Source: a virus. From it: a stretch of 64,000 nucleotides of DNA. Shown piece after piece: positions 2,392 to 38,133 of the stretch. The first letter of the stretch is position 1; every line of letters starts with the position of its first letter. Position numbers and translations under genes: made by a program. The stretch lies in the IMG/VR virus record IMGVR_UViG_3300042375_000763, positions 1-64,000 of that record. One strand, 5' to 3'. Under the pieces are notes generated by a model, which saw nothing but the letters and a program-made list of their open reading frames with translations, was not told the origin of the DNA and did no database searches.

Positions 2392-2952
2392 TTATGATCT
2401 TAATCTTACATTTGATAATGATAAAAATTCTGTAGTAATATATGCCTTTTCTGTAGCAAAATCGTGTGGACAACCTCTATCTTTAATTCGTTTTGGATCT
2501 GTATATGTTGGAGTTTCTTTCCAGTCAAATCCATATATATCTAAAGATGCAGGGCTAGAACTCATTATCCAATCTAATGCAATTAAACCAGTAGTTGGAT
2601 TATTATGTTGTCCTGATTTTTTTCTTAGTTCTGTATAATTTGGTATCATTGGATAAACAAAATCAGTTTGTTTTGTATTTGCGTCAAATCTTGCCTGGTG
2701 GCCTGCGTGCATTTTCTTTACTTTTGGATATTTGGAAAATTGATTCTTGTATTCACTAGTATTCCAAAATATCCAAACATCTGTCTTTTTACCATGACTT
2801 TTTTCAACATCCATTCTATCATATAGCATTGCAGCTTTATTTAGTCTTACTACTACATCATGTGAATCAATTTCTTTGCCATAATTTTTATCAAAGAGAG
2901 ACATTGCGTTGCCGATAATGGCAACTGTTTTACCTTCAAACCATTCTTTCAT
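2392..2952 (-). CDS. GT29 sialyltransferase-like glycosyltransferase, paralogue A
   Basis: 186 aa. It has the sialyltransferase-fold motifs in order. Motif-L-like VAIIGNAMSLFDKNYGKEID with VVVRLN is at residues ~9-38, motif-S-like NPTTGLIALDWI with LDIYGFDW at ~115-145, and the HX4E motif VS is HDFATE at ~163. Family GT29 enzymes transfer sialic acid or a related nonulosonate/Kdo-like sugar from a CMP donor; the true donor here is unknown. It is the last gene of the glycan cassette, overlaps its neighbour by 4 nt (ATGA) and is one of three paralogues. Confidence 0.75.
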   Translation of the reverse strand: MKEWFEGKTVAIIGNAMSLFDKNYGKEIDSHDVVVRLNKAAMLYDRMDVEKSHGKKTDVWIFWNTSEYKNQFSKYPKVKKMHAGHQARFDANTKQTDFVYPMIPNYTELRKKSGQHNNPTTGLIALDWIMSSSPASLDIYGFDWKETPTYTDPKRIKDRGCPHDFATEKAYITTEFLSLSNVRLRS

Positions 2953-3452
2953 TTTCTTAACTCAAAAATATTAGTATTAAAAAATTTATTTGCACAATAT
3001 TTATTTTCTAATTGAAAATCGTGCCTATTGTCGTGTAGCTTAGTATCATGAAAAGATGGAGTAGCTTTCCAATCAAATCCATATACACAAACCTTTTTAG
3101 GATTATAAAGAGAAATTAAATGTAAAATTCGCAAACCGGTTGAGGGTCTGTGGTGACCTAAATCACTTTTTAGCCATTCTATATCTATTAAAGGGCTATT
3201 TAATATTTCTATAGTATGATTACAAGTTTTTGTTGTGACCTTTTTCGGGTTCATTGTTTTAAACCAATTTAGAAACCAAACATCAGTTCTTTGGCCATGT
3301 GATTTTACATCACTTGGTTTTAACATGAAAAATCCCCGTTTAATTCTACAGACAACTTCCGAAGAGTCTATTTCGGCTCCATAATTGGTATTGAATAGAC
3401 TTTTAGCATTACCAACTAGAGAGATTGTTTTACCTTCAAATAGTTCTTTCAT
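2949..3452 (-). CDS. GT29 sialyltransferase-like glycosyltransferase, paralogue B
   Basis: 167 aa. It keeps the same motif order: ISLVGNAKSLFNTNYGAEID, then RPSTGLRILHLI with VCVYGFDW, then HDFQLE (HX4E). All three motifs needed for CMP-sugar transfer in GT29 are recognisable. It overlaps the genes on both sides by 4 nt, so the cassette is translationally coupled. N-termini of the three paralogues start alike (MKE[WL]FEGKT), pointing to duplication within the phage lineage. The acceptor is unknown. Confidence 0.73.
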   Translation of the reverse strand: MKELFEGKTISLVGNAKSLFNTNYGAEIDSSEVVCRIKRGFFMLKPSDVKSHGQRTDVWFLNWFKTMNPKKVTTKTCNHTIEILNSPLIDIEWLKSDLGHHRPSTGLRILHLISLYNPKKVCVYGFDWKATPSFHDTKLHDNRHDFQLENKYCANKFFNTNIFELRK

Positions 3453-19118: not shown

Positions 19119-20060
19119 TTAGGTCTTTGAAAGGTTTCTGAAGAACTCTAGATCATCTTCATCTTCGTCAGTTGAAGCGGCTTGTTCTTTCATTGGAGCT
19201 GCAGGTGTCTCTTTTTTAGGGGCCTGTGCTTTACTCATATCGAGTTCACCATATAGATCTTCCTCTGCTGAAGACGCAGCATTGGAGCGAAGATCGGCAT
19301 CAGCACCAACAATGCCAAGTACACGATGAAGTTTTGCCTTTAGTTCATCATATGGTTTGAAGTTCTTTGGATCAATGACATCCTTGAGAGAATGTGATTG
19401 TTTCCATACTCTTTCAATTTCAGAATCATCTTCGAAGAAAGCAGACGATGAATCAAATTCAGATTTATCATAGTTTGGATAACCTTCAAACACCCGGATT
19501 TTCAATCGGAAGTTAGCACCTTCCCATAGATCGAATGGGTTAACAGGCTTTTCATCTTCGAATGAAGGATTCATAAGATCATTGAGTTTGTCCCAGATCT
19601 TCTTGCCATATTTAAACAAGAATACCTTGCCATCATTTTCTGGGTTGCCAGAATCCTTAACGATATATACGTTAGAGATGTAATGAAGTCTGCGTTTCTG
19701 GTCACGTGCTTGTTTACGTTCTGGAGCACTATCGTCAGTACTCACATTCCATAGTTTGGTATTTAGTTCAGATACTGGGTCTGGTTGACCAACTGTCGTA
19801 AGTGAATTTTCGATATACCAACCACCAGGACCTTTAAACCCGTGGTCCCATAGACGTACGAATGGCATATCCTCGCCTTCTGGTGAGTCTAGAAAGCGAA
19901 TAATCGCAAAACCATTACCTGCTGAGTCTCGAGTCGGTTTCCAATATTTACCTTCATTTGGATCGGCATATGATTTGGAACTGATTTTTGTGAGCTGTTG
20001 GTTCAGTTTCTCGAGTGAATTTGAACGGTTCTTCTTTAGTGCTTGAAAATCTACAGCCAT
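19119..20060 (-). CDS. 32: Single-stranded DNA-binding protein gp32
   Basis: 313 aa, as T4 gp32. The N-terminus is a basic self-assembly segment (FQALKKNRSNSLEKLNQQL); the core has GKYWKPTRDSAGNGFAIIRFL; the C-terminal acidic tail (STDEDEDDLEFFRNL) binds partner proteins. Canonical T4 zinc-ligand Cys/His spacing is not evident, as in other marine T4-like phages. It coats ssDNA in replication and recombination with UvsX, gp59 and gp41. Confidence 0.92.
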   Translation of the reverse strand: MAVDFQALKKNRSNSLEKLNQQLTKISSKSYADPNEGKYWKPTRDSAGNGFAIIRFLDSPEGEDMPFVRLWDHGFKGPGGWYIENSLTTVGQPDPVSELNTKLWNVSTDDSAPERKQARDQKRRLHYISNVYIVKDSGNPENDGKVFLFKYGKKIWDKLNDLMNPSFEDEKPVNPFDLWEGANFRLKIRVFEGYPNYDKSEFDSSSAFFEDDSEIERVWKQSHSLKDVIDPKNFKPYDELKAKLHRVLGIVGADADLRSNAASSAEEDLYGELDMSKAQAPKKETPAAPMKEQAASTDEDEDDLEFFRNLSKT

Positions 20061-20140: not shown

Positions 20141-20737
20141 TTACTCGAAAAAGTGTTCTTTGACAATATCTGAAAATTTTTTTCGATTTATTTCCAAAAA
20201 TGGATAATATTTTTTGGATAGTCTAATAATATCACCTGCCACGATTTTGTCAACTACTTCCTTTGACCATCGTTCATAAACATTTGAAATGTTTGCTAAA
20301 ATTGTAAACGTTTCAATGGATATTTTGTTTTGTAAATATAGTGATATTACATATGGGTGCTGACCATTAACAGGGATAAAATTCTCTGCATAATTCTCTT
20401 TTAATCTAGAGAGATCATTTTTGAATATGTATGTTATTGAGTCAATTCTGCCTTCCCATTCAGCAAAAATAGTTTCGGCATTTTCTTCTAATATTTCTCT
20501 TACCCAGATGTTTGGGTTTTTAAGTATATTAGCCAATATCATATTATGCCAATCTTTTTTCTTTGATAGTTTATAGAAAAAGAAAACATCATTTCTAGTG
20601 GAAAAACTATCAAATGATGCTCTTACTTTTCCATTATATTTTTGGTAATCGTAACTATCAGTAGTAAAATGTCGCTTCAGTGCCAGATAATCGACATAAA
20701 CACGAAACGATTCATCAGTCGCATAGTTTATTGTCAT
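20141..20737 (-). CDS. 59: Helicase loader gp59
   Basis: 198 aa; T4 gp59 is 217. DESFRVYVDYLALKRHFT opens it, and the helical C-domain (NGQHPYVISLYLQNKISIETFTIL) is typical. Order 33-59-32 is as in T4. It recruits gp41 onto gp32-coated forks. Confidence 0.82.
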   Translation of the reverse strand: MTINYATDESFRVYVDYLALKRHFTTDSYDYQKYNGKVRASFDSFSTRNDVFFFYKLSKKKDWHNMILANILKNPNIWVREILEENAETIFAEWEGRIDSITYIFKNDLSRLKENYAENFIPVNGQHPYVISLYLQNKISIETFTILANISNVYERWSKEVVDKIVAGDIIRLSKKYYPFLEINRKKFSDIVKEHFFE

Positions 20738-20948
20738 TTTTATCTTTTTTCACCAATTTCATATTAATAGCTTCGGATCTAATCTTTTCTTTCATTACAG
20801 TTGATTTTTTCACAATTTCTGCAATTGTTTCTATTTCAACATTTCGTGTTTTGGCATATTCAACCAATGCATCAATATAGGGAACTCCCATTGAAAGCAT
20901 TCTTGCAATTTCAAAATGAATCTTTTCAGGAGTTTGTGTTTCTATCAT
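20715..20948 (-). CDS. 33: Late transcription coactivator gp33
   Basis: 77 aa. IHFEIARMLSMGVPYIDALVEYAKTRNVEIETIAEIV is the gp33 core of marine T4-like phages. gp33 bridges the host polymerase flap to the sliding clamp and gp55 at TATAAATA promoters, which are present in this window. It overlaps gene 59 by 23 nt. Confidence 0.82.
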   Translation of the reverse strand: MIETQTPEKIHFEIARMLSMGVPYIDALVEYAKTRNVEIETIAEIVKKSTVMKEKIRSEAINMKLVKKDKNDNKLCD

Positions 20949-23265: not shown

Positions 23266-24159
23266 TTACCAGAATTTCAGTTTCTTTACTACGTTTTTAG
23301 CACCATCTGAAATAGTATTTACAACAGTAGTTCCGGTATTCACTACAGTTGTTGCAGCTTGAGTAGTTACATTAGCAGTATCATTTGCTACATTTACTAC
23401 TGCTACTTGTGCTGGTTTAGTATCAACACTGACACTAGTATTAACTTCAACACCCGCTAGTAATGCAACTTCACCACTTACACCAACGGTAGCAACACCA
23501 TGATCCATAGTGGCACCGCCGCCGACTTCAGCACCTACTTGAACCCCTATACTAGCACCAGCGCCCGCACTGGCTCCATTACCATTACTGTCATATGCAC
23601 TGGTTGTATTTTCTACACCAACACTTGCACCTGCGACAGCACCAGCATGACCCGCAACACCATCTTTACCAACTTGTACGTCAGCTCCAGCACTTGCTCC
23701 TGCCTCTGCTTTAACAGTTGTTTCATTTTTTACCGTAACATCACCAACTTGTTGACTAATGCTAGCACTCGCTTCTGCGCTTACACCCGCTTCAACACCG
23801 ACTTGTGCATATGCATTACCATCTGTAAATCCTGCTTGAGCTCCTGCTGTCGCATGTGCTTCGGCACCTGCATGTGCTTCTACTGATGTGTCACCATAAG
23901 TTGCACTTGCTCCTGCTTCTGCACTTACACCTACTTCGGCAGATGCAGCAGCACTTGTATTAGTTATTTCTGTTCCTGCTGTCGCATGTGCTTCGGCACC
24001 TGCATGAGCTTCTAAATTAACTCCGCCGACCGTAGTTTCAGTAGTTACCTCTTTGTTTACACTTGCACTTGCTCGTGGATTAATATCCGTACCAGCTGTG
24101 AAGTCACTAGATGCTTTAGTTTTAAGACCTTTTTTATCTTTTTTTGTTTTATTTGCCAT
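23266..24159 (-). CDS. Ala/Gly-rich beta-repeat protein
   Basis: 297 aa, very low complexity: Ala, Gly, Val, Thr, Ser and Glu dominate. It has a basic N-terminus (KTKKDKKGLKTK), imperfect repeats such as VEAHAGAEAHATAG appearing twice, and a C-terminal amphipathic tail (AKNVVKKLKFW). No Cys. Repeats alternate small and polar residues like silk-, amyloid- or membrane-sheet-forming proteins. A late promoter (24220-24227) lies upstream. Could be a head, decoration or membrane-active protein; unknown. Confidence 0.6.
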   Translation of the reverse strand: MANKTKKDKKGLKTKASSDFTAGTDINPRASASVNKEVTTETTVGGVNLEAHAGAEAHATAGTEITNTSAAASAEVGVSAEAGASATYGDTSVEAHAGAEAHATAGAQAGFTDGNAYAQVGVEAGVSAEASASISQQVGDVTVKNETTVKAEAGASAGADVQVGKDGVAGHAGAVAGASVGVENTTSAYDSNGNGASAGAGASIGVQVGAEVGGGATMDHGVATVGVSGEVALLAGVEVNTSVSVDTKPAQVAVVNVANDTANVTTQAATTVVNTGTTVVNTISDGAKNVVKKLKFW

Positions 24160-25333: not shown

Positions 25334-25578
25334 CCTTTTCTTGTTGACGATGACACAAAGTTATAAAGTGCAGAAGCACGAGTTATGACTTCTTCTGGTG
25401 TATACATTGTAGGAGAGTTTTGTTCAACAAAATTATTTACTCCGCCAATGTCTGTAGTTCGCAATGTCTCAACTTGTTGATTGAATTTTTGCTCTTTCAA
25501 AAACATTTCTCTGTCTAGCATTTCTTGTGCCATTTTCAAAACATCAAGTCGAACTTCGAAGGGATTCTTATTATTCAT
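25321..25578 (-). CDS. Conserved small protein coupled to the vWA gene
   Basis: About 85 aa from the ATG at 25578, which overlaps the vWA stop by 8 nt. NPFEVRLDVLKMAQEMLDREMFLKEQKFNQQVETL is a strongly helical segment seen in similar marine-phage proteins. Function unknown. Confidence 0.6.
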   Translation of the reverse strand: MNNKNPFEVRLDVLKMAQEMLDREMFLKEQKFNQQVETLRTTDIGGVNNFVEQNSPTMYTPEEVITRASALYNFVSSSTRKGEGS

Positions 25579-26380
25579 CTTTTGATACTGAAGCAGTTCG
25601 TTCTTGGTCAGTAAAAGCAGTTGCCACATAAAGAGCTGCCACGCCGTCGTGGCCACTATATTCACCAGTCGCATAAGCTGATTTCATACGAGACGTCATA
25701 GCAGATGCAGAACGCATTGTGTTACCCATTGAAGCGGTATCATATTGCATAGTATTATTGGAATTGAAACCAAGTGCAGAACCTGCAGCAAATGCATTGA
25801 TATTTGCACCGAGGAACATAAAGCCCCAGTTTTTACCTTCTGCTTTTTCCACCATTTGTTTGACTGTAGTATTATTGAAAGTTCTGGAAGCATTTTCTGC
25901 ACCATCAGTCAAGATAGTGATAATGATAGAGTCACGATCTGCTTTCTTGTTTGCAGAAAGTTGACTATTGATCTGCATCATGACACCACCAATGGCATCA
26001 TAAAGGTTTGTGGTACCTTGTGGATCATATGTTTTTTCATTAAGATCTTGAACTTCATCTACAGTAACACGACTGAAAACACTGTTGACAGACGAACCGT
26101 CAAATTTATAAAGGGAAACAAAGGTTGGAATCCCCGTCTCCACTGCGTCTTTCTTTTGTGCTTGTAGGTACTCGTTATAGCCAGAGATCGTTGCAGCACG
26201 ACAGGACTGCATTGAGCCAGAATCGTCTAGAACAAAGATAATATGAGAGGTTTTTGTACCCGCGCGTTTCGGCTTGAACGCATCAGCAAGTGATACAGTT
26301 GGTTTTGAAACAGTAAGTGTTGTATGCGGGAGAATATTTACTTGTTGGTTTGGGAGTTTTGGAAAATTTACATATGTCAT
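25571..26380 (-). CDS. von Willebrand factor A-domain protein
   Basis: About 269 aa from the ATG at 26380, with AAAGG upstream. HIIFVLDDSGSMQSC (~40-54) is the metal-binding MIDAS DxSxS motif, with a Thr (DPQGTTNLYDAI) and Asp (ILTDGAEN) completing it. vWA domains mediate protein contacts or metal-dependent assembly. It is the first gene after the tmRNA. Confidence 0.82.
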   Translation of the reverse strand: MTYVNFPKLPNQQVNILPHTTLTVSKPTVSLADAFKPKRAGTKTSHIIFVLDDSGSMQSCRAATISGYNEYLQAQKKDAVETGIPTFVSLYKFDGSSVNSVFSRVTVDEVQDLNEKTYDPQGTTNLYDAIGGVMMQINSQLSANKKADRDSIIITILTDGAENASRTFNNTTVKQMVEKAEGKNWGFMFLGANINAFAAGSALGFNSNNTMQYDTASMGNTMRSASAMTSRMKSAYATGEYSGHDGVAALYVATAFTDQERTASVSKDE

Positions 26381-26453
26381 AATAGACCTTTCTATGTTGT
26401 GTGATGTGTGATGCAACTTTTCTGTTTCTAGGTAAGTTGCCAACCCACAGTAC

Positions 26454-26498
26454 TTATGCTGCTAGAGCAAAAGCCTTAGGTGCGAAATTTTCATTTGC
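26454..26498 (-). other. tmRNA proteolysis-tag reading frame
   Basis: Fourteen codons from GCA to GCA then TAA: ANENFAPKAFALAA. Ends -ALAA as in known ssrA tags. Confidence 0.92.
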
Positions 26499-26581
26499 AT
26501 TTCTTATTTTATTGCGTTAACCGAGCTTTCGCCGGGTAGCTCCATCCTGCCTAGTGCGCCTGTCGATCCTATTTATCGCCC

Positions 26582-26678
26582 AGCAAAGATACCGATCGTC
26601 TTGTTTACATAAACTTATCTCGCCATATGATAGCAATGCTTCATACATCCAAGGGTTCCATAAACTGACCGGTATCTG
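26582..26678 (-). other. Structured intervening segment of the permuted tmRNA
   Basis: Closed by AGATACCG/CGGTATCT. Homologous in sequence and predicted helices to the intervening segment of the permuted tRNA-Phe (41037-41134), including ATGGCGAGA and the GTTTA/TAAAC pairing. Confidence 0.8.
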
Positions 26679-26743
26679 TGGTGGACGATTCGGGTACCGC
26701 CCCCGAGTCCAGAACGTGTTCAGTGAATATCATCACTACATAG

Positions 26744-26968
26744 TTATTTATTACATCTTTTTAAATATGCTTCTTCAAAATCATATTCATGTACACAATT
26801 TTCGTGATTACCCCAGATACGATCAAAGTAACCATTATATACACTCATGATTTCTTTTTCGCGCCAAGAGTCCGGGATAAGATGACCTTTCACAATCCAG
26901 AAGTATCTATTGGCTTCTTTTAATTCAACCTCTGTCATATCTTCTTTGTTTTTCTTCTTCTGAATCAT
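26744..26968 (-). CDS. Small protein upstream of the tmRNA
   Basis: 74 aa, charged N-terminus then EANRYFWIVKGHLIPDSWREKEIMSVYNGYFDRIWGNHEN. No known motif. Its stop abuts the tmRNA 5' end, so it may be co-transcribed with the tmRNA. Confidence 0.6.
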   Translation of the reverse strand: MIQKKKNKEDMTEVELKEANRYFWIVKGHLIPDSWREKEIMSVYNGYFDRIWGNHENCVHEYDFEEAYLKRCNK

Positions 26969-27030: not shown

Positions 27031-27798
27031 TTATAATTTCTCGTAGTGAAATTGTAAAATTTGTTGAACTATACTTTCAAAGTTATCTAGATGTAACATA
27101 TTAGGACCATCAGAAGGTGCATTATCAGGGTCGGGGTGTACTTCTAAAAAGAAATTAGAAACACCTATAGCGCTAGCAGCTCTACATAGACCTGGTACAT
27201 AATTACGATTACCAGAACTTGAATCTCCAGCGCCACCAGGTCTTTGAACAGAATGTGTAGCATCAAATACGAGTTTAGTATTAAAATTATCTAATATGTA
27301 TTGCATACCAGTAAAGTCAACTACTAGATTATTATAACCAAAACTAGTACCTCTTTCAGTTATCCAGACTTCTTTTGCAGATGCTGTTTTTGAAAGTATT
27401 CCTGAGATATCCCAAGGTGCCAGAAATTGACCTTTCTTGATATTTACTATTTTACCTGTTTCACAAGCAGCAAGTATTAAATCCGTTTGTCGACATAAAA
27501 ATGCAGGTATTTGTATTACATCAACAACATCTTTAATATAAGAAATATGATCTTGTTCATGAATATCTGTAACTATTTTAATATCTTGTAAATCTTGCTT
27601 TATTTTCTTAAAATCATCAATAGTCCTAGAAATACCTAGTCCTCTTTTACCATTTATACTTGTTCTATTTGCTTTATCAAAACTTGCTTTGAAATAATAA
27701 TCTATATTGTACTTACGGCATATATCAGAACAATGTTTTGCTATTTCTAATGATTGTTTTAAACTTTCGTGTTGACAAGGTCCTGCTATAATAATCAT
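27031..27798 (-). CDS. kdsA: 3-deoxy-8-phosphooctulonate (Kdo-8-P) synthase
   Basis: About 255 aa. IIIAGPCQHES, YFKASFDKANRTS, VDVIQIPAFLCRQTDL, ERGTSFGYNNLVVDF and HPDPDNAPSDGPNML are the KdsA active-site blocks. It condenses PEP with arabinose-5-phosphate, the first committed step to Kdo for LPS or capsule. The ATG at 27798 starts 2 nt after the cupin stop; a GTG at 27813 is possible. It may support the Kdo-transferase-like gene at 7406-8374. Confidence 0.9.
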   Translation of the reverse strand: MIIIAGPCQHESLKQSLEIAKHCSDICRKYNIDYYFKASFDKANRTSINGKRGLGISRTIDDFKKIKQDLQDIKIVTDIHEQDHISYIKDVVDVIQIPAFLCRQTDLILAACETGKIVNIKKGQFLAPWDISGILSKTASAKEVWITERGTSFGYNNLVVDFTGMQYILDNFNTKLVFDATHSVQRPGGAGDSSSGNRNYVPGLCRAASAIGVSNFFLEVHPDPDNAPSDGPNMLHLDNFESIVQQILQFHYEKL

Positions 27799-27802
27799 TA
27801 AT

Positions 27803-28159
27803 TTAAATTTCACTTCCTATACTTCGGCGGACAATATCATCATGATTAAATTCAGCCCAATATAATTCAAATGCAACACCATCTTCAAGTCCTTCAAATT
27901 GATGAATCTTGCCGGGTTTGACTTGTGTAAAATCACCTGGACCAAGAATAGTTTCATCAACCAAGCCTTTTTGATCAGCATCTTGCCATACACGAACTAG
28001 CATTTTACCAGATTCAACAAAGAATCCATTCCATTTAAATCTGTGTTCGTGTTCACTGCATTTAAATCCTGATTTAAATTCAATTCTATGAAACTCAAGA
28101 ACACCGTTTGCGTGTATTAATTCGGTATTTCCCCAAATTTTTCCAGCTTTTATACCCAT
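27803..28159 (-). CDS. Cupin-domain protein
   Basis: About 118 aa from the ATG at 28159, with a strong GGAGG site. FKCSEHEHRFKWNGFFVESG and LGPGDFTQVKPGKIHQFEGLEDG are the two cupin motifs with metal-binding His/Glu. Adjacent to kdsA; possibly a sugar isomerase or sensor. Substrate unknown. Confidence 0.72.
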   Translation of the reverse strand: MGIKAGKIWGNTELIHANGVLEFHRIEFKSGFKCSEHEHRFKWNGFFVESGKMLVRVWQDADQKGLVDETILGPGDFTQVKPGKIHQFEGLEDGVAFELYWAEFNHDDIVRRSIGSEI

Positions 28160-28171
28160 AAGAACCTCCAT

Positions 28172-28205
28172 ATAAAAATGAGAGGCTAACCATAGGCCTC
28201 TCACG
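28172..28205 (-). terminator. Rho-independent terminator
   Basis: Stem GAGAGGC/GCCTCTC followed by ATTTTTAT on the minus strand; ends the outer-membrane-protein operon before the cupin/kdsA pair. Confidence 0.8.
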
Positions 28206-28239
28206 GGTTTATTTATGGGAACCAAACCTTGTTATAGAA

Positions 28240-31822: not shown

Positions 31823-32953
31823 TTAAATTACAATTACTTCAAGCGGTGGAAACCCATTAAATGCTACAGTGCTGTATGTAGTAGTATAAGCACCTGTATT
31901 ATCAATGATGATTTTATCACCACATTTTAAGTTTTCTGATAATAGAACTTTATGTTCTTCATAAAGCACATCAGCACTATCACAGGTAGGTCCTGCAATA
32001 ATGTATTCAATTTTCTCATCCGCATCTTTACCAGGAATAAAGAACCTATACTTGATAGCTTCCTTTTCTGTTTCTGCAAGACCAGAAAATCTTCCGATAT
32101 TTAGATACAACCATCTTACTGGATCACCAGGTGTCTTTGTAGAGACTAGAAGTACTTCAGATGCAATAGATCCTAGATTTGCAACCATTCCACGACCTGG
32201 TTCGATCATCAGATATTTCAGTCCAGCAAACCGATCATAGATTTCTTTGTTTAGTGTTTCACAATATTCTACCGAATCTGTTATGTCAACCCCATAATAA
32301 CTAGGGAAACCACCACCTGCATTTAATAGCCAAAGATCAAAGCCTTGTTCCTTGCTGTAATTCCAGATACTTTCAACAAAATCCAAAGTATCAAGCCACA
32401 TATGAGGATGTCTAGTTTGACTTCCAACATGAAAACTTAAACCAGCAACTTCTAGACCAGCATCTCTTGCAGCTTCCATAACTTGAGGAACCATACTTGA
32501 ACTGCAACCAAACTTGCGACTTAGAGGCCATTCTGCTTCAGTACTTCTGACAAGAACTCTGACAAAGACTTGAGAACCAGGTGCGTGTTCAGCAACCTTT
32601 TCTACTTCTTCTATAGAATCAACTGCGAATAGTTTGATACCTTTTGAATATGCATATTTAATGTCTTGAGGTCTTTTAACTGTATTACCGAAACTGATAT
32701 TGGATGGAGATGCACCTGCTGTTAGGCACATGTCTATTTCACCTGCAGATGCTGCATCAAATTTTGAACCAAGACTATGCAATTTAGAAAGGATTTCTGG
32801 ATGAGGATTTGCTTTCACTGCATAATGTACATGACACGAAGGCATTCCAGCTTTAAAACCGTTGTAATTAGTTTCTAAATTTTCAAGTGACATAATTAAA
32901 GTAGGACGATCAAAGTTATTATTTTTTATATAATCGTGTACTAAATTTTCCAT
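31823..32953 (-). CDS. Ornithine decarboxylase (PLP fold type III)
   Basis: 376 aa. HYAVKANPHPEIL carries the PLP lysine, FHVGSQT and LNAGGGFPSYYG bind phosphate, EPGRGMVA follows, and GPTCDSADVL contains the catalytic Cys/Asp typical of ornithine decarboxylases. It makes putrescine, useful for DNA packing and translation. Lysine or arginine specificity cannot be excluded. Confidence 0.88.
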   Translation of the reverse strand: MENLVHDYIKNNNFDRPTLIMSLENLETNYNGFKAGMPSCHVHYAVKANPHPEILSKLHSLGSKFDAASAGEIDMCLTAGASPSNISFGNTVKRPQDIKYAYSKGIKLFAVDSIEEVEKVAEHAPGSQVFVRVLVRSTEAEWPLSRKFGCSSSMVPQVMEAARDAGLEVAGLSFHVGSQTRHPHMWLDTLDFVESIWNYSKEQGFDLWLLNAGGGFPSYYGVDITDSVEYCETLNKEIYDRFAGLKYLMIEPGRGMVANLGSIASEVLLVSTKTPGDPVRWLYLNIGRFSGLAETEKEAIKYRFFIPGKDADEKIEYIIAGPTCDSADVLYEEHKVLLSENLKCGDKIIIDNTGAYTTTYSTVAFNGFPPLEVIVI

Positions 32954-34007: not shown

Positions 34008-34195
34008 AAATAGACTAGTTTTGTTGTGTGTCTTGACGGGCCGCTTACTGGCGATCCACAATGAATGTGTTTTGGGTATTCCAGGGTTTCAGAATTTCGG
34101 CCTATAGTACAAACCCTTTTTATATAAATATAATTGTAGCTCGCGGATTTCTTGGCGGTCATCCCAACTACACTAGAAACATAAGGAGTTCCAGC
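34008..34195. other. Non-coding leader between tRNA-Val and the plus-strand endonuclease
   Basis: No gene seen apart from the plus-strand late promoter at 34123. Confidence 0.5.
34123..34130 (+). promoter_or_regulatory. T4-type late promoter, plus strand
   Basis: TATAAATA upstream of the plus-strand GIY-YIG gene. Confidence 0.7.
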
Positions 34196-34831
34196 ATGAT
34201 ATATTTATACGTCAAAACACACAACAAAACTGGTCTAAAATATTTAGGCAAAACAATCAATGAAGATCCATACAAATATACGGGATCAGGTAAATATTGG
34301 TTGAGACATCTTAAAAAGTATGGTACTGATTACACTACGCAAATACTTCTAGTAACTGAAGATAAAGATGAGCTAAAACAAACTGGATTATTTTTTAGTA
34401 AAATTTGGAATATTGTTAAATCTAAAGAGTGGGCAAATTTAATGCCAGAATCTGGCAATGGCGGAAAACAAGAAAAACTTTTAAACGAAGGTAAACATAA
34501 TTTTCAAAATTCTGAAGTTCAAAGAAAAATTCAATTAAATAGAGTTAAAAAAGGAACTCATAATTTACAATCTAAAAATAGAAATTCTACTAGAATAAGT
34601 AGAAAGGGTATTCCCCATCCTGTTACACTTCAGAGAAACCTTACCGATGATAATCCGTTTCGAGGTAACATTCCATGTATTGATAAAAATGGTAATTCAA
34701 TAATGATTGAAAAAAGCTTTTATTATGCACAAAATGGAAATAAAGAAGATTGGAATTATGTTCATACAAAATCTAAAGAAGCAAAGAAAAGAAAATTATT
34801 AACTGCTACTACAAACCTTTTTTCGCTTTAA
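34196..34831 (+). CDS. GIY-YIG homing endonuclease, free-standing
   Basis: 211 aa. YLYVKTHNKTGLKYLGKTINEDPYKYTGSG is the GIY-YIG core; WLRHLKKYGTDY follows, then a basic DNA-binding tail. ATG at 34196 follows AAGGAG. It is inserted against transcription between tRNA-Val and tRNA-Ser, has its own late promoter and converges with the 34809-35063 gene, overlapping by 23 nt. Confidence 0.85.
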   Translation: MIYLYVKTHNKTGLKYLGKTINEDPYKYTGSGKYWLRHLKKYGTDYTTQILLVTEDKDELKQTGLFFSKIWNIVKSKEWANLMPESGNGGKQEKLLNEGKHNFQNSEVQRKIQLNRVKKGTHNLQSKNRNSTRISRKGIPHPVTLQRNLTDDNPFRGNIPCIDKNGNSIMIEKSFYYAQNGNKEDWNYVHTKSKEAKKRKLLTATTNLFSL

Positions 34832-36590: not shown

Positions 36591-36666
36591 TGGTGACCCC
36601 AGTGGGACTCGAACCCACGACATTTGCTTTTAGAGAGCATGCTCTAACCATCTGAGCTACGGGATC
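36591..36666 (-). tRNA. tRNA with anticodon CTA (amber-reading)
   Basis: 76 nt with CCA; acceptor GATCCCG/TGGGGTC, T-arm GTGGG/CCCAC. Best anticodon arm is TGCT-CTCTAAA-AGCA, giving CUA with canonical U33 and A37A38 but only 4 stem pairs. Confidence 0.75.
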
Positions 36667-38027: not shown

Positions 38028-38133
38028 TGGGGTTTCTGGTGGGATTCGAACCCACGTCCCGCAGAGCCAGTTCTTTTTCGGTGTATCTTACCATCATAGC
38101 TGGGGTGCCCTTCTACCGCTGAATTACAGAAAC
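38028..38133 (-). tRNA. Aberrant tRNA with ~30-nt extension
   Basis: Acceptor GTTTCTG/CAGAAAC, C73 and CCA, canonical T-arm (GTGGG TTCGAAT CCCAC) and a D-arm-like TTCAGCGGTAGAA. The anticodon/variable region is ~30 nt too long, with CCAG/CTGG closing part of it. No anticodon can be assigned. Confidence 0.55.

What the first reader, a model, noticed from the sequence alone, without database searches (positions are those of the whole stretch)
26408..26740. Phage-encoded permuted two-piece tmRNA
All parts are visible: G3:U70 acceptor, T-arm, conserved GGATCGACAGGC and the tag ANENFAPKAFALAA. Phage tmRNAs are known, but a permuted alphaproteobacterial-type one is rare as far as I know. It indicates host range and points to phage control of ribosome rescue.
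Basis: partly seen in the sequence, partly recalled or inferred. Interest (0 to 1): 0.9.

Follow-up and report, generated by a model that had tools for sequence, protein, structure and literature searches.

The report
Phage-borne two-piece tmRNA gene
A T4-like phage of unknown host carries a complete, apparently functional gene for a split ribosome-rescue RNA (tmRNA); this is a real find but of a kind already described in aquatic phages, with a protein tag that was not found in any of about 85,000 bacterial and archaeal species genomes searched.

Summary
On the minus strand at about 26413-26740 there is a complete circularly permuted (two-piece) alphaproteobacterial-type tmRNA gene. ARAGORN calls it, with tag ANENFAPKAFALAA, and both Rfam models pass their cut-offs (104.7 and 95.3 bits). 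The contig is an 80-kb fragment of a T4-like phage (gp32, gp33, gp59, UvsX, topoisomerase II). Relatives collected through the neighbouring VWA protein gene, not through the RNA, carry a tmRNA just upstream of it in 24 of 24 informative loci. Across 11 distinct RNAs the G3:U70 alanine determinant is constant, while the acceptor stem, T-stem, 3' pseudoknot and the helix joining the ends of the intervening sequence covary. That is strong evidence of a processed, aminoacylated RNA. No SmpB gene was found in 13 phage records searched, so the host must supply it. Phage permuted tmRNAs were reported in 2022 (Melnitz; 53 two-piece cases), and I found at least 119 IMG/VR stretches plus unannotated copies in isolate phages. 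The tmRNA type is a poor host marker: Melnitz infects a non-alphaproteobacterium, and the tag pattern was absent from 84,980 prokaryote genomes. New member of a known kind.

The parts
26679..26740 (-). acceptor piece (tRNA-like 3' half): P2 strand, T-arm, 3' acceptor strand AUCGUCC, A73 and encoded CCA (3' end 26679)
26690..26706 (-). T-stem UCGGG/CCCGA with alpha-type loop GGCGGUA
   Evidence: 5/5 pairs in all relatives with a readable T-stem, swapped arms 4.1
26582..26678 (-). intervening sequence (97 nt), expected to be removed from the precursor
26667..26677 (-). 5' arm of the helix joining the two ends of the intervening sequence (AGAUACCGGUC)
   Evidence: 9-11 contiguous pairs in all 11 distinct relatives, with covariation
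26587..26597 (-). 3' arm of the same helix (GAUCGGUAUCU)
26413..26581 (-). mRNA-like piece: 5' acceptor strand GGGCGAU (G1 at 26581, G3 at 26579), P2, PK1, tag frame, 3' pseudoknot
26454..26498 (-). tag reading frame ANENFAPKAFALAA + UAA
26434..26440 (-). 3' pseudoknot, 5' arm GCAACUU
   Evidence: arm pairs GCAACUU/AAGUUGC, GUCACC/GGUGAC, GCAACC/GGUUGC, GUAACUU/AAGUUAC in relatives
26413..26419 (-). 3' pseudoknot, 3' arm AAGUUGC
26750..26778 (-). promoter-like TTGAAG-N17-TGTAAT directly before the acceptor piece; in relatives TTGACA-N17-TATAAATA, i.e. overlapping sigma70-like and T4-late-like boxes at a fixed distance
   Evidence: consensus only
25571..26380 (-). downstream gene: von Willebrand factor A-like protein (DDSGSM MIDAS-like motif), phrog_7371, constant neighbour of the tmRNA in this lineage
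20715..20948 (-). gp33-like late-transcription coactivator; same downstream order gp33-gp59-gp32 as behind ssrA in phage Melnitz
20141..20737 (-). gp59-like helicase loader
19119..20060 (-). gp32-like ssDNA-binding protein (phage identity)

Best explanation
It is a functional phage-borne ssrA gene of the permuted, two-piece, alphaproteobacterial type, kept as a stable gene of a T4-like phage lineage. It is transcribed as one precursor from a promoter directly in front of the acceptor piece. A helix joins the ends of the 97-nt intervening sequence, and host tRNA-processing enzymes cut it out, leaving an acceptor piece (26740-26679) and an mRNA-like piece (26581 to about 26413) held together by the acceptor stem and P2. 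Host AlaRS charges it through G3:U70, host SmpB delivers it to stalled ribosomes, and it adds the phage-specific tag ANENFAPKAFALAA, read by host ClpXP-type proteases. The likely benefit is keeping ribosomes free, and recycling peptides, while phage transcription and mRNA decay create many nonstop messages. Shown by sequence: anatomy, constant G3:U70, covarying helices, conserved locus, no SmpB gene found. Inferred: transcription, processing, charging, tagging, benefit.
For: ARAGORN and two Rfam models. Relatives gathered through the downstream protein and so unbiased for the RNA: 24 of the 24 loci with enough upstream sequence hold a tmRNA just upstream (3 of the 27 are cut off). Eleven distinct RNAs were read in detail: all 7/7 acceptor pairs, all G3:U70, with several different acceptor stems. 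Own acceptor arms pair 7.0 of 7 against 5.4 when arms are swapped between tag-family sequences. The helix of the intervening sequence has 9-11 contiguous pairs in all 11 with covariation (AGAUACCGGUC/GAUCGGUAUCU, AAACAUAUUGU/ACAAUAUGUUU, AAUAGCACG/CGUGCUAUU), and the 3' pseudoknot covaries. mRNA-piece stretches are 85-100% identical where flanking genes are 70-75% identical. No SmpB in the window's 80 kb or in 12 other tmRNA-bearing phage records, with positive controls. The same order tmRNA ... gp33-gp59-gp32 occurs in Melnitz.
Against: No expression, processing, charging or tagging data. The promoter evidence is consensus matching only, and the window's own box deviates from the relatives' TATAAATA. 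The host is unknown, so use of its SmpB is assumed. The contig is a fragment (80 kb; a >99.9% identical contig is 115.7 kb), so an SmpB gene elsewhere in the genome cannot be excluded.
Confidence: 0.86

Rival explanations
1. A passenger copy of a host ssrA gene picked up by chance (imprecise excision or transduction) without function for the phage.
For: Such transfer is known for prophages that integrate in ssrA (discussed in PMC9004378).
Against: Conserved at one locus in diverged phages (24/24), with covariation and constant G3:U70. The tag pattern is absent from 84,980 genomes, so it is not a recent host copy. The lineage is T4-like; no integrase was seen, though not every protein was scanned.
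Confidence: 0.05
2. An interfering tmRNA: the phage RNA competes with host tmRNA for SmpB/AlaRS or adds a tag that host proteases handle differently, so that rescue is redirected or blocked rather than supplemented.
For: The tag was not found in prokaryote genomes. A tagless phage tmRNA (DS6A) inhibits host tmRNA when expressed in E. coli (cited in PMC11915505).
Against: The tag keeps the usual A-N...N start and ALAA end; no structural element is missing; phage tags vary from lineage to lineage while nearly all keep the ...AA end.
Confidence: 0.08
3. A host chromosomal fragment or assembly chimaera.
For: The window is metagenomic; one record alone could be chimaeric.
Against: Five further contigs (L114, L121, L131, L135, L139) are >99.9% identical across the locus, and diverged phages share the arrangement.
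Confidence: 0.01

Closest known systems
ssrA of Methylophilales phage Melnitz (PMC9004378; MZ577097.1 45984-46436)
   Same: phage-borne, permuted, alpha-type two-piece tmRNA; T4-like phage; 14-aa tag (ANDNYVPVDYALAA); upstream of gp33-gp59-gp32
   Different: different tag; Melnitz has a glutamine riboswitch in its 3' domain (paper), while in the window region Rfam shows none; here the next gene is a VWA-like protein
Permuted tmRNAs of isolate phages DSS3P8, RcXuper, RcRudolph (unannotated in the records) and Rhizobium phage RHph_I1_18 (SsrA mentioned in a feature note)
   Same: permuted tmRNA above the Rfam cut-offs
   Different: tags ANINNAPMEMAIAA, ANENFAPMEMRLAA, ANDNVRMDAQALAA, ANDNSVQVRLAA; other gene neighbourhoods; GOLLD RNA beside it in DSS3P8
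Bacterial alpha_tmRNA, RF01849 (for example Caulobacter)
   Same: architecture, T-loop GGCGGUA, G3:U70, UAGGAUCGAC motif, 3' pseudoknot, tag start AN and end LAA
   Different: acceptor pair 4:69 is C:G here, where the Rfam consensus is G:C; tag pattern not found in 84,980 genomes

Membership tests
permuted (two-piece) tmRNA, RF04321 / RF01849 | score above the curated Rfam cut-off | tested here: met
   95.3 bits (cut-off 47) and 104.7 bits (cut-off 50)
permuted (two-piece) tmRNA, RF04321 / RF01849 | gene order acceptor piece - intervening sequence - mRNA-like piece | tested here: met
   intervening sequence 97 nt
permuted (two-piece) tmRNA, RF04321 / RF01849 | alanine identity pair G3:U70, 7-bp acceptor stem, CCA | tested here: met
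permuted (two-piece) tmRNA, RF04321 / RF01849 | tag reading frame with resume codon GCA, stop codon and hydrophobic ...AA end | tested here: met
   ANENFAPKAFALAA*
permuted (two-piece) tmRNA, RF04321 / RF01849 | pseudoknot in the mRNA-like piece | tested here: met
   3' pseudoknot covaries; PK1 seen by eye only
permuted (two-piece) tmRNA, RF04321 / RF01849 | processing into two RNAs | not testable with these tools
   needs RNA-seq or northern blot; the end-joining helix covaries
trans-translation system | SmpB partner | tested here: not met
   no PF01668 match in the 80-kb record nor in 12 other tmRNA-bearing phage records; must come from the host. The record is a fragment, and this lowers only the claim of a self-contained system
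host-derived (recent) ssrA copy | near-identical sequence or tag in a bacterial genome | tested here: inconclusive

The most novel reading that the evidence does not exclude
A phage-lineage tag (ANENFAPKA[FY]ALAA), found in phages but in no sequenced prokaryote species searched, is maintained because phage-tagged proteins are sorted differently from host-tagged ones (different SspB/ClpX handling), with expression timed by overlapping early and T4-late promoters. The phage would then run its own branch of trans-translation on host SmpB.
Probability: 0.12. Interest if true: 0.65.

Novelty: new member of a known kind. Interest (0 to 1): 0.36.

Why it matters
It adds a well-supported lineage of phage tmRNAs with evolutionary evidence of function (covariation and locus conservation). 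It also shows that phage permuted tmRNAs are common and often unannotated, and warns against using tmRNA type to name a host. Whether phages benefit from supplying tmRNA remains open and is testable in cultured systems such as Ruegeria phage DSS3P8 or Rhodobacter phage RcXuper.

Tried and rejected
First acceptor-arm pattern had one N too many and found nothing; corrected. The similarity search of plasmids gave only short chance matches. Amber recoding of the phage (suggested by a CUA tRNA) as a reason to need tmRNA: no long reading frames interrupted by TAG, so rejected. Tags from my own scripts are partly wrong-frame; only ARAGORN tags and those are used. In one search the pattern itself fixed U70 and CC, so G3:U70 constancy is claimed only from the protein-collected sample. 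The pair-count tool was not used because the automatic alignment misplaced gaps in P2; arms were extracted directly instead.

Full report
What is there. On the minus strand, ARAGORN calls a permuted tmRNA at 26363-26774 with tag ANENFAPKAFALAA. The Rfam models alpha_tmRNA (104.7 bits) and tmRNA_permuted (95.3 bits) both match far above their cut-offs. Reading the sequence: acceptor piece about 26740-26679 with T-arm UCGGG-GGCGGUA-CCCGA and encoded CCA; intervening sequence 26678-26582; mRNA-like piece from 26581 to about 26413 with GGGCGAU, UAGGAUCGACAGG, tag frame 26498-26454 and a 3' pseudoknot GCAACUU/AAGUUGC. The acceptor stem GGGCGAU/AUCGUCC contains G3:U70.

What carries it. The window is part of an 80,190-base linear IMG/VR record of a T4-like phage: DnaB-like helicase, UvsX, gp32, topoisomerase II, gp59, gp33, and 27 tRNA genes. 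gp32 is about 50% identical to those of phiN3, Melnitz, Cr30 and cyanophages, so no close named relative was found. Five other contigs are >99.9% identical across the locus, so the arrangement is not an assembly accident.

Is it functional? I collected relatives through the downstream protein, which does not select on the RNA. Three of 27 loci are cut off; in the other 24 a tmRNA lies just upstream, with tags such as ANNNFAPKSFALAA, ANDNFAPVAYALAA and ANTNAKPEVRLAA. All distinct RNAs read in detail have 7/7 acceptor pairs and G3:U70 although the stems differ. In the tag-collected family, own arms pair 7.0 of 7 and swapped arms 5.4; T-stem 5.0 against 4.1. The two ends of the intervening sequence, absent from a mature two-piece tmRNA, form 9-11 contiguous covarying pairs in all 11, which argues for one precursor that is then cut. 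The 3' pseudoknot arms covary. mRNA-piece stretches are 85-100% identical where flanking genes are 70-75%.

Expression. Directly before the acceptor piece, relatives carry TTGACA-N17-TATAAATA or TATAAATA at a fixed distance (16 of 22 loci; not independent sequences). TATAAATA is the T4 late promoter box (established knowledge). In the window it occurs 11 times on the coding strand and 2 times on the other, 5.0 expected per strand. The window itself has TTGAAG-N17-TGTAAT / AATAAATA. Early plus late transcription is thus plausible but only inferred.

Partners. No SmpB was found in the window's record nor in 12 other tmRNA-bearing phage records, with working controls. The phage must use the host's SmpB, alanyl-tRNA synthetase, processing enzymes and proteases. 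The neighbouring gene encodes a VWA-like protein of unknown function with distant relatives in many large phages; a functional link is not shown.

Is it rare, and does it name the host? Neither. PMC9004378 reports a permuted, alpha-type two-piece tmRNA in Melnitz and 53 two-piece tmRNAs in 18,146 phage genomes, 50 of them marine or aquatic. I confirmed Melnitz and found copies in DSS3P8, RcXuper, RcRudolph and RHph_I1_18 and in at least 119 IMG/VR stretches by one pattern (ARAGORN calls). Melnitz infects a methylotroph that is not an alphaproteobacterium, so the type does not prove the host. The tag pattern is in 19 viral stretches and in none of 84,980 GTDB species genomes. That suggests a phage-only tag, but both genome scans returned nothing and I could run no positive control. 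An alphaproteobacterial host is still the more likely one.

Synteny. In Melnitz ssrA is followed by gp33, gp59 and gp32; here the tmRNA lies about 6 kb upstream of the same gp33-gp59-gp32 block. This hints at an old position in this T4-like group, not proven homologous by a tree.

Verdict. A real, well-supported, functional-looking phage tmRNA; a new member of a known kind. The extra value lies in the covariation evidence, the covarying precursor helix, the conserved locus and the apparently phage-only tag.

Noticed in passing
window 36591-36666 (-): tRNA with CUA anticodon (ARAGORN calls it Pyl), i.e. a likely amber suppressor, in a 27-tRNA array. No long TAG-interrupted reading frames were found.
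   Followed up: partly
window 38031-38133 (-): Rfam tRNA match (41.3 bits) 103 nt long that ARAGORN does not call; the extra length lies around the anticodon arm, so an insertion, intron or odd variable arm.
   Followed up: no
window 34123-34209: About 70-bp stretch 88.7% identical to Rhizobium phage RHph_I1_18 and also conserved in L129, lying between two TATAAATA boxes on opposite strands: perhaps a conserved divergent late-promoter element.
   Followed up: no
L002 3351-3784 (Roseobacter phage DSS3P8): A GOLLD RNA (150.7 bits) lies about 170 bases before an unannotated permuted tmRNA.
   Followed up: no
L133 and L128, just after the tmRNA: The 3' pseudoknot region appears duplicated in tandem (GGTATGAGCTCCACC... 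repeated).
   Followed up: no
window 27031-28225 and 31823-32953 (-): Metabolic genes: DAHP synthase (PF00793), a cupin / cysteine-dioxygenase-like protein and an ornithine/DAP/arginine decarboxylase.
   Followed up: no
window 2392-3452 (-): Two adjacent frames both match glycosyltransferase family 29 (sialyltransferase-like); they overlap by four bases.
   Followed up: no
window 23842-24014: A 41-bp direct repeat about 132 bp apart inside the 297-aa frame 23266-24159 (self-matches).
   Followed up: no
window 25571-26380 (-): VWA-like protein gene that stays next to the tmRNA in this phage lineage; distant relatives occur in Streptomyces, Gordonia and Microbacterium phages.
   Followed up: partly
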